Assembly (NCBI GenBank): GCA_011389555.1
Contig: JAABUD010000224.1
Coordinates: forward strand, 1 to 34,351
Direction: 5' to 3'
Source: Desulfotignum sp.
GTDB lineage: Bacteria > Desulfobacterota > Desulfobacteria > Desulfobacterales > Desulfobacteraceae
DNA: 34,351 bases
Shown here: one piece after another, positions 17,489 to 19,401 of the stretch
Layout of the letters: every line of letters begins with the position of its first letter
How positions within the stretch are numbered: position 1 is the first letter of the stretch
Position numbers and translations under genes: made by a program
Notes under the pieces: generated by a model
The model's input: the letters and a program-made list of their open reading frames with translations, nothing else
Database searches by the model: none
Told to the model about the DNA's origin: nothing

Positions 17489-18106
17489 TCAATAATCGCA
17501 GATGGACGGATCCACGCTGGCCGGCACCCCTTCATACGGGGTCCATTTGTGGGATTTGTAGCTGTCCCCGTCCCGCATGTTTTTCAGGATCTCGATGCTG
17601 GTTTTGTAGCCCTTGTACATGCGGCACATCTCCATGGCCATGCCGCAGATCAGGGCCACGGCCTGGGCCATGTTGATGTCGTGGTGGGAAAATTCCCAGG
17701 GTTCGGCCGTGTAGACCCGCATGGCACCGATGATTTTGTTGCTGCTGATGATGGGAACCCCCAGCAGGGAGGCGATCCCTTCATTTTTCGCCTGTTCCGG
17801 ATATTCGATGCGCGGATCGTCCATGACATCAAAGATGGCAATGGGCACGGCATCTTTGGCCTCCCGGATGGTCTGCATGAAATGGATCGGGCCTTTGTTC
17901 AGGTATTCGTGGCTCAGGCCGGATGAGGCCACCAGTCCCAGCTCCCGGGTTTCCCGGTTGACCAGAAGCACGGAACATCCCTTGGCGTTGAACGCGGTTT
18001 TCACGCTTTCCGCCGTGATCCAGGCCACCTCTTCCGGGTCCTTGCACTGGGAAATGGCCGTGGTGAGTTTGACGATGGTGTCATAATACATGGCATGTTT
18101 TTCCAT
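17489..18106 (-). CDS. GAF domain protein
   Basis: The protein has 205 residues and a strong AAGGAGGGTGAA site before the ATG. One GAF domain fills residues about 15-165, with KGCSVLLVNRETRELGLVAS, then GIASLLGVPIISSNKIIGAMRVYT as the family core. A short C-terminal helix and tail (165-205) follow. There is no output domain, DNA-binding motif or membrane span, so it would sense a small ligand or redox state and act through a partner. Its stop lies 2 bp from the convergent helicase stop. A good promoter and a long leader of about 165 bases lie upstream. Confidence 0.88.
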   Translation of the reverse strand: MEKHAMYYDTIVKLTTAISQCKDPEEVAWITAESVKTAFNAKGCSVLLVNRETRELGLVASSGLSHEYLNKGPIHFMQTIREAKDAVPIAIFDVMDDPRIEYPEQAKNEGIASLLGVPIISSNKIIGAMRVYTAEPWEFSHHDINMAQAVALICGMAMEMCRMYKGYKTSIEILKNMRDGDSYKSHKWTPYEGVPASVDPSICDY

Positions 18107-18309: not shown

Positions 18310-18362
18310 GGGCTGATCGGTAGTATGCCGCCCCTGGTGGGGGGGGGTGCCATCAGCGACTA

Positions 18363-18554
18363 GTGTCGGGGGGTGTCAGGGGGTCGAATCCCATTCTGAC
18401 GAGGTTGCTACAGGCTGTTGGGCCTGGCGGAGCGTCAAGAACGGTGAACTGTTTGAGGACATACCTGCCCGCAGTTTTCACCGTTCAGCGCAGCCAGGCA
18501 CTACAGCCTGTGCAAACGCGGCAGAGGGTGAGCCCCCCTGACACCCCCCGACAC
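18363..18554. repeat. 192-bp imperfect palindrome with perfect 21-bp terminal arms
   Basis: Bases 18363-18383 (GTGTC, six G, TGTCA, five G) are the exact reverse complement of 18534-18554. Further complementary blocks lie inside in mirrored order: TTGC (18405) with GCAA (18512), ACAGGCTGT (18410) with ACAGCCTGT (18503), GCCTGGC (18422) with GCCAGGC (18493), GCG (18432) with CGC (18489), and AACGGTGAACTG (18440) with CAGTTTTCACCGTT (18472). The terminal loop is 18452-18471. An outer pair GGCTGATC (18311-18318) / GATCAGCC (18564-18571) also fits. The order and spacing support one long hairpin in RNA or extruded DNA. It could be a MITE-like mobile element, a structured non-coding RNA or a very large terminator; no target-site duplication or promoter was found. 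Confidence 0.85.
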
Positions 18555-18615
18555 GGGTCATTTGATCAGCCGGTATCCACAGCCAGGCACGTGTGGGGAA
18601 AGTTTGCCGGAGAGC

Positions 18616-19401
18616 TCACTTCACCCGGGCCGCGATATCGGCCAGGACCGGCCCGGCTTTTTCTTTGATCAACACCTGGCACCGGTTGTCATAAGGAGTA
18701 GGGGACAGGTTAATGATGGCTAAAAAAGCACCCGCATCCAGAGCATATTCAGGCATCAGTGCCGCCGGCTGGACCAGAAGGGTGGACCCCACCACGAGAA
18801 ACACGTCGCATTGCGATGACAGTTCGGCAGCCCGCCGGGTTTCCTTTTCCGGCATGGCCTGGCCAAAGGAGATGGTGTCCGGCTTGAGATATCCCCCGCA
18901 ATCGCACCGGGGGGCTTTGTCACCGGCCAGGATCCTCTGTTGTGCGGCATCCCAGGAAACCAGGGTGCGGCAGGACATGCACCGGACCCGCCGGGTGTTG
19001 CCGTGCAGTTCGATGATGTTGTCCTCCGGGATGCCCGAAGCCTGGTGAAGCCCGTCAATGTTCTGGGTGATCACCGCCGTGAGGTGTCCGGTTTCGTAAA
19101 GCTGTGCAATACTCATGTGACCCGCATTGGGCCGGGCGTTCTTCAATCCTTTTTCCATGTCCATGCGCATGTCCCAGTATTGAATCCTTGCTGTCTCGCT
19201 GGACATGAACGCATCAAAATACACCGGGGTGAATTTGTCCCACAGCCCGCCCTGGCTCCGGTAGTCCGGGATGCCGCTTTCCGTGGACATCCCGGCCCCG
19301 GTGAATACGATCACGCTGCGGGCCGTTGTGATTTTTTCGGCAATGATCCGGGTGTGGGCCTGGATCTCCGGGGTCAGGACCGGGGTGGTTTTTTTTGCCA
19401 T
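18616..19401 (-). CDS. Sir2-family NAD-dependent protein deacylase
   Basis: The protein has 261 residues. The NAD-binding motif TGAGMSTESGIPDYRS is at 34-49, TQNIDGLH at 112-119, and the catalytic His133 lies in ELHGN. The zinc knuckle is C141, C144, C166 and C168; the last pair is CxC rather than CxxC. It should remove acyl groups from lysines in the cytoplasm using NAD, producing nicotinamide and O-acyl-ADP-ribose. In short-chain acid users such enzymes often reactivate acyl-CoA synthetases, one of which lies at 32435-34336; a link is possible but not shown. The ATG overlaps the end of murJ by 28 bp and is preceded by AAGGAG, so the pair is probably co-transcribed. Confidence 0.92.
   Translation of the reverse strand: MAKKTTPVLTPEIQAHTRIIAEKITTARSVIVFTGAGMSTESGIPDYRSQGGLWDKFTPVYFDAFMSSETARIQYWDMRMDMEKGLKNARPNAGHMSIAQLYETGHLTAVITQNIDGLHQASGIPEDNIIELHGNTRRVRCMSCRTLVSWDAAQQRILAGDKAPRCDCGGYLKPDTISFGQAMPEKETRRAAELSSQCDVFLVVGSTLLVQPAALMPEYALDAGAFLAIINLSPTPYDNRCQVLIKEKAGPVLADIAARVK

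What the first reader, a model, noticed from the sequence alone, without database searches (positions are those of the whole stretch)
18363..18554. 192-bp near-continuous palindrome with perfect 21-bp ends
The two 21-base ends are exact reverse complements, and five further complementary blocks sit in mirrored order inside, leaving a 20-base terminal loop. Independent blocks keep pairing although loops and bulges differ, which is what a maintained RNA or DNA hairpin looks like. It has no protein gene and no target-site duplication I can see. It may be a MITE or REP-like mobile element, or a structured RNA.
Basis: seen in the sequence. Interest (0 to 1): 0.75.

Follow-up and report, generated by a model that had tools for sequence, protein, structure and literature searches.

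The report
Mobile intergenic hairpin with conserved core
The 200-base hairpin is one of about two dozen dispersed copies in this sulfate reducer's genome, and its tip belongs to a hairpin core that recurs in many related bacteria inside repeats with different ends, so it looks like a non-coding mobile element with a structured core rather than a one-off palindrome.

Summary
The palindrome is real: two perfect 21-bp arms, MFE z -10.8. It is not single-copy. The unit is 18358-18559 ("H"); 25 related places lie in the own genome and copies occur in 13 of 13 genomes of the genus. The 31 full copies examined are intergenic, with mixed neighbour orientation. At the window locus H is in G000 and G008, absent from G004, G010 and G012. 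Pairing is maintained: 29 of 74 pairs carry double changes, 12.4 in shuffles. The apical core recurs in 97 of 389 genomes of the order, inside at least four repeat types with different ends; one type has inverted termini and 6-bp target duplications. In three types G.U exceeds A.C on the + strand. Best reading: a non-autonomous mobile repeat family with a conserved single-strand hairpin core. The mobilising enzyme was not found, type A shows no target duplication, and RNA versus ssDNA is unresolved. No Rfam match above threshold; none in the plasmid, phage, E. coli and viral-contig searches made.

The parts
18358..18559 (+). H element (type A), whole unit GACTAGTG...CACGGGTC; + is the strand with the CTGTTTGAGGACATACCTGCCCGCAG apex
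   Evidence: ends seen in the raw copies and in 31 aligned full copies picked with patterns for these ends
18363..18383 (.). 5' perfect 21-bp arm
18534..18554 (.). 3' perfect 21-bp arm
18386..18398 (+). 5' conserved block GAATCCCATTCTG (12 columns invariant, 1 nearly so, in 31 copies)
18523..18531 (+). 3' conserved block AGAGGGTGA facing it
18417..18505 (+). core hairpin shared with other genera and families (covariance-model match, 88.8 bits)
18432..18441 (+). lower internal loop, 5' side (GCGTCAAGAA; GCGTTAAGAA in many relatives)
18484..18488 (+). lower internal loop, 3' side (TTCAG; TTTAG in many relatives)
18449..18474 (+). apex CTGTTTGAGGACATACCTGCCCGCAG
18323..18351 (+). probable remnant of the S palindrome family, fused to the left of H
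   Evidence: aligned by eye with the complete S at the same locus in G012; upstream-block matches; too short to be reported by the S search itself
17489..18106 (-). flanking gene, GAF-domain protein
18616..19401 (-). flanking gene, Sir2 family

Best explanation
H is a copy of a non-autonomous, chromosomal, intergenic mobile repeat whose functional unit is a single-strand hairpin. Shown: dispersed copies with common ends, presence/absence at the same intergenic sites in different species, maintained pairing, and a core kept across genera and families while stem sequence and termini change. Inferred: an enzyme acting in trans recognises the folded + strand (apex and 5'-side bulges) and the termini, and inserts it between genes without a target duplication, as IS200/IS605-type enzymes are known to do with their hairpins (recalled). 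In other lineages the same core sits inside elements moved by a different, duplication-making transposase (type D). The window copy is an older insertion shared with one sister species; nothing shows that it does anything for the host.
For: 25 places in the own genome; 13 of 13 genus genomes. Window locus with H in G000 and G008, without in G004 and G010, S only in G012. A second intergenic region with H in G000, G004 and G011, without in G009, G010, G007, G006 and G001. Intergenic 31 of 31, orientation mixed. Covariation above both controls. Window against the G008 copy at the same locus: 6 pairs changed on both sides, 0 on one. Core in 97 of 389 order genomes, 83 matches at E 0.001 or better in one genome. 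Type D target duplications: 13 of 14 agree in at least 5 of 6 bases, shuffled mean 2.9, maximum 8. G.U against A.C cells on strand-neutral pairs: A 24/4, B 21/2, C 36/16.
Against: No mobilising enzyme identified: 0 Y1 matches in the own (incomplete) assembly, no end similarity at the 12 of 45 genus Y1 places tested, none seen at 7 of 12 loci of G028/G300. No target duplication for type A. No overall replication-strand bias in G028, 28 of 59, though 13 of 18 in the best-scoring subset and 11 of 29 in the next; replication-coupled ssDNA transposition would predict a bias. Several copies stay at one site in several species, so type A may now be largely immobile. Type D shows little asymmetry (17/12) and the reverse with a looser pair set (29/49). 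Within type A unpaired columns are not better conserved than paired ones (0.904 against 0.920).
Confidence: 0.6

Rival explanations
1. H is a multicopy structured RNA gene family: the + strand is transcribed and its folded RNA is the selected product; mobile-element ends only spread it.
For: Double-sided changes, G.U over A.C on one strand in types A, B and C, apex conserved across genera, the same core with several different ends.
Against: No common upstream sequence before the minimal copies, by eye. In the window region no terminator-like site, and the one promoter-like match lies left of H on the - strand and points away from it. Mixed orientation to neighbours. No Rfam match above threshold. 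Template switching can also yield double changes.
Confidence: 0.2
2. Plain selfish palindromic DNA: pairing is kept mainly by template switching and gene conversion between arms, and conserved motifs only reflect common ancestry within each type.
For: At the same sites double changes rival single ones (20 against 16 over the seven, partly overlapping, comparisons), as expected if one event edits both arms; mechanism described in PMC8794818 (abstract and outline seen).
Against: Asymmetric internal loops are kept across families instead of being corrected; stems differ widely between genera while the apex flanks do not; strand asymmetry of wobble pairs in A-C.
Confidence: 0.15
3. A DNA site used by the host (chromosome organisation, recombination or termination), spread by duplication.
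For: Intergenic, genus-wide, some copies kept at one site in several species.
Against: Matches per genome range from 2 to 83; no match in 292 of 389 order genomes at E 1e-4; no fixed orientation to genes or replication.
Confidence: 0.05

Closest known systems
[quoted passage not shown] QMITE2, RUP, Correia (PMC10969869 and PMC2229807, passages seen)
   Same: short, non-coding, palindromic, intergenic, multicopy, non-autonomous; type D relatives have inverted termini and 6-bp duplications
   Different: type A has no detected target duplication; one core hairpin is shared between elements whose ends differ
REP/REPIN elements and their RAYT (Y1) transposases (PMC3116915, passages seen)
   Same: extragenic inverted repeats with compensatory stem changes; single-strand hairpin model
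   Different: H is about 200 bp; no link to a Y1 gene found in the part examined; no Y1 match in the own assembly
IS200/IS605-derived non-autonomous elements (PATEs; titles seen only, features recalled)
   Same: type C relatives end in a small hairpin followed by GGTTATA and sit next to TTATA, by eye
   Different: no Y1 gene with these ends at the 7 of 12 loci read in G028 and G300; no overall replication-strand bias
ERIC/IRU and YPAL palindromic repeats of enterobacteria (PMC2229807, passages seen)
   Same: imperfect palindromes up to about 168 bp, mostly intergenic, non-autonomous
   Different: no sequence match in the E. coli genomes held

Membership tests
MITE | terminal inverted repeats | tested here: met
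   21-26 bp arms
MITE | target-site duplication | tested here: not met
   type A: mean longest direct repeat near the ends 1.32 against 1.30 in shuffled pairings; met only for type D relatives, 13 of 14
MITE | autonomous parent element with the same ends | tested here: inconclusive
   type D ends only: one wide pair in 2.1 Mb of fetched loci, holding ordinary-looking genes by eye; type A ends not searched this way
REP/REPIN | associated with a RAYT/Y1 transposase flanked by the same repeat | tested here: inconclusive
   not found: 0 Y1 matches in the own incomplete assembly, no similarity at 12 of 45 genus Y1 places
IS200/IS605-type non-autonomous element | subterminal hairpins plus a fixed target sequence | tested here: inconclusive
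   seen by eye for type C, not for type A
IS200/IS605-type non-autonomous element | Y1 transposase gene with matching ends | tested here: inconclusive
   none seen at 7 of 12 loci read by eye
ERIC | sequence homology to enterobacterial ERIC | tested here: not met
   no blastn match in 5,426 E. coli genomes at E 0.01
Rfam structured RNA family | match above a gathering score | tested here: not met
   best 52.9 bits against a gathering score of 168, a miRNA hairpin family; none in 9 related loci at E 0.5
structured RNA | covarying pairs above control | tested here: met
   on four of five measures (further pair types not above shuffles); the structures were derived from the same alignments
structured RNA | transcript | not testable with these tools
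   no expression data

The most novel reading that the evidence does not exclude
A conserved, strand-specific structured hairpin module (RNA or folded ssDNA) rides in at least four non-autonomous element types with different ends across the order Desulfobacterales: the module, not the ends, is the conserved replicating unit, and it has a dedicated trans-acting partner that is still unknown.
Probability: 0.35. Interest if true: 0.8.

Novelty: new variant of a known kind. Interest (0 to 1): 0.55.

Why it matters
It turns a lone palindrome into a large repeat family of the Desulfobacterales that my literature searches did not find described (25 places in the window's genome; 59 core matches in one nearly closed genome; 83 in a draft). 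A conserved hairpin core carried by elements with different ends is not what ordinary MITE decay is expected to give, and makes a testable case for recognition of a folded single strand, or for a mobile structured RNA. It may also explain contig breaks in these genomes.

Tried and rejected
Protein gene: 101-aa ORF without Pfam match. Rfam: miRNA hairpin families below threshold only reflect long pairing; a tRNA-Sec match (E 1.5) is treated as chance. Terminator: none by consensus. Plasmids: three blastn searches with the window element, a type D and a type C element; phages: two; E. coli: one; viral contigs: two exact patterns; all without match. RAYT as partner: see the Against line. Replication-strand bias: 28 of 59, origin and terminus placed by GC skew of 20 samples. 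A 3-kb interval between type D ends in G119 holds ordinary-looking genes. Target duplication for type A: none; a direct repeat seen by eye at one locus was not upheld. Acidobacterial match L073 has no palindrome around it and is taken as chance; Marinimicrobia L079 is a B-type core on a 3.5-kb MAG contig, perhaps mis-binned. Integron attC was considered from memory only and not tested.

Literature: (open PMC texts only; one search was too broad to be informative). The HRM2 genome paper (PMC2702500, passages) counts 2357 exact repeats of 50 bp or more; no such hairpin is described in the passages seen, nor in those of PMC4046663 (D. phosphitoxidans), PMC4853749, PMC10969869 or PMC2267715.

Dropped rows: one search kept 31 type A copies (15 own, 16 from relatives, some of them one site in several species); of 14 core matches it lists as incomplete, 7 are type A copies missed by narrow end patterns and 7 are other types; copies cut by contig ends, duplicates and copies with another apex were skipped without a line. 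Of 17 type D rows with both termini 3 were left out (L243 runs off its contig; for L254 and L271 a wrong right end was picked); 23 further rows had no termini by my pattern.

Full report
1. The observation. The two 21-base ends are exact reverse complements and the stretch folds as one long hairpin on either strand, as RNA (z -10.8 and -11.9) and as DNA (z -12.8 and -9.5). In ten first-order resamplings of the window the longest inverted repeat with a spacer of 200 or less was 10-14 bases, against 21 here. Copies show the unit to be 18358-18559, GACTAGTG...CACGGGTC.

2. It is a dispersed repeat. A 301-base query found 25 places in the own genome related to the hairpin (sequences): 16 full-length, 6 cut by contig ends (some may be two halves of one copy), 2 truncated and 1 with an internal deletion. 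Thirteen of 13 genomes of the genus have copies. Of the other 46 genomes, 7 matched, and only in the apical part.

3. Location. Of 31 full copies with recognised ends (15 own, 16 from relatives, some of them one site in several species), 31 are intergenic by a simple ORF caller; neighbours lie in all relative orientations (10 >H>, 6 <H<, 4 <H>, 2 >H<, 9 with one or no neighbour called). Of 17 copies sampled in G028, 16 were called intergenic and 1 genic. The window copy lies between a Sir2 gene and a GAF-domain gene.

4. Presence and absence. At the window locus G008 has H, G004 and G010 have none, and G012 has only a small palindrome of a second family, S; G009 and G011 align on the Sir2 side only and show no H there; in the remaining genomes the two genes were not found side by side. 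S is separate: 7 of 10 distinct S sites in the own genome lie just 5' of an H, against 3 of 8 in G009 and 2 of 12 in G011. In a second intergenic region H is in G000, G004 and G011; G009, G010, G007, G006 and G001 lack it, G003 and G002 carry S plus what looks like an H remnant, and G005, G008 and G012 have other sequence there. In a third region H is in G000, G010 and G011 and, by adjacent matches, G009, with a 3' remnant in G004, a truncated copy in G001, none in G012, and other palindromes in G003, G007 and G006. So H comes and goes at intergenic sites, yet some copies persist through speciation.

5. Pairing is maintained. In 31 copies 97.9% of cells pair; 29 of 74 pairs show changes on both sides (12.4 in shuffles, 0 of 500 reach it; slid structures 6-11; the structure came from the same alignment). 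At one locus, window against G008: 63 pairs unchanged, 6 changed on both sides, 0 on one side. Over the seven same-site comparisons of that call (same site by flanks, partly by eye; two share a sequence) there are 20 double and 16 single changes. Such a share of doubles is also what template switching between palindrome arms produces (PMC8794818, abstract and outline), so pairing alone does not prove selection on a fold.

6. A core shared between different repeats. The stretch GCGTTAAGAA-stem-CTGTTTGAGG..CC(C)G(C)AGTT-stem-TTTAG recurs in other genera with different stem sequences. In 20 such cores 8 of 17 pairs have double changes (4.8 in shuffles, 3 of 500 reach it; the count of further pair types is not above shuffles) and the apical region is 0.939 identical against 0.809 for the stem; these rows were found through the apex, which favours that contrast. 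A covariance model from them (short calibration) hits 97 of 389 genomes drawn from the order, 60 of these in other families, and 9 of 395 drawn from the phylum, 3 of them outside the order. It scores 83 places in one draft genome and 59 in G028, whose 5,589,073-base contig suggests D. autotrophicum HRM2 (recalled).

7. Four sets of ends. Type A (window): TCARCGRCTAGTG...CACGGGTC. Type B (Desulfobacula and others): CCAGTG...AACGGGT. Type C (G024, G028, G300): TTATA-flanked elements ending in a small hairpin and GGTTATA. Type D (other families): GATGNNNTCGTAAAAAGTC inverted termini. A to C were read by eye; some distant cores have yet other ends. For 14 type D copies the six bases outside both ends agree in at least 5 of 6 in 13 (9 exact); shuffled pairings give 2.9 on average and 8 at most. 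The same kind of test on type A finds nothing (1.32 against 1.30).

8. Which strand matters. On pairs predicted from both strands, so that neither is favoured, G.U against A.C cells on the + strand are 24/4 (A, 31 sequences), 21/2 (B, 16), 36/16 (C, 21) and 17/12 (D, 37); columns 11/4, 13/2, 27/11 and 9/8. With pairs from either strand they are 148/68, 85/18, 103/27 and 29/49. This points to folding of the + strand in A-C, as RNA or ssDNA, and not in D; cells share ancestry, and a mutational strand bias cannot be excluded. Within type A unpaired columns are not better conserved than paired ones (0.904 against 0.920), though some loop blocks are invariant.

9. Mechanism. Dispersal, presence/absence and common ends argue for a non-autonomous mobile element; the kept bulges, apex and strand asymmetry argue that a folded single strand is recognised. 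Against an IS200/IS605- or RAYT-type enzyme: 0 Y1 matches in the own assembly (317 contigs, 93.66% complete; 12 of 13 genus genomes have some), no shared sequence at 12 of 45 genus Y1 places, none seen at 7 of 12 loci of G028/G300, and no overall replication-strand bias in G028 (28 of 59; 13 of 18, 11 of 29 and 4 of 12 by score class). The enzyme is unknown.

10. Verdict. Real, repetitive, and part of a broad family that my searches did not find described. It resembles MITEs and REPINs, but type A fails the target-duplication test of the first and no RAYT link was found for the second in the part examined. Filed as a new variant of a known kind.

Noticed in passing
window 18323-18351; L162 about 2335-2445; sites: S, a separate palindrome family of about 105 bp (GCCGCCCC...GGGGCTCYGCTGT); by eye its ends resemble those of type C elements of other genera.
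   Followed up: partly
L339-L358 (G028): Several intergenic regions read as tandem mosaics of hairpin modules joined at GGTTATA/GAAAC, some carrying the H core.
   Followed up: partly
G153, G119, G155, G301 (list truncated): The type D terminus also occurs as inverted pairs about 60-190 bp apart, many closer than the core-bearing element, so several size classes may share one transposase; their inner sequence was not read.
   Followed up: no
L395, L396, L397 (third region): Different Desulfotignum species carry other palindromes in the same intergenic region, as if it were a hotspot.
   Followed up: no
L405, L406, L408, L207: Y1 (RAYT-like) genes lie among their own short repeats, for example ones with ccaataagccaagcctgacccc (L405) or aagtaaggtgtccccagatcc (L406).
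   Followed up: no
L079 3454-3474: B-type core on a 3.5-kb contig of a Marinimicrobia MAG, perhaps contamination.
   Followed up: no
G000 contigs C70, C282, C59, C78, C272, C305: Contigs end in or within a few bases of H copies; the repeat seems to break the assembly.
   Followed up: no
window 18309-18281 (-): A promoter-like match on the - strand (10 of 12; 0.2 expected) that points towards the GAF gene and away from H.
   Followed up: no
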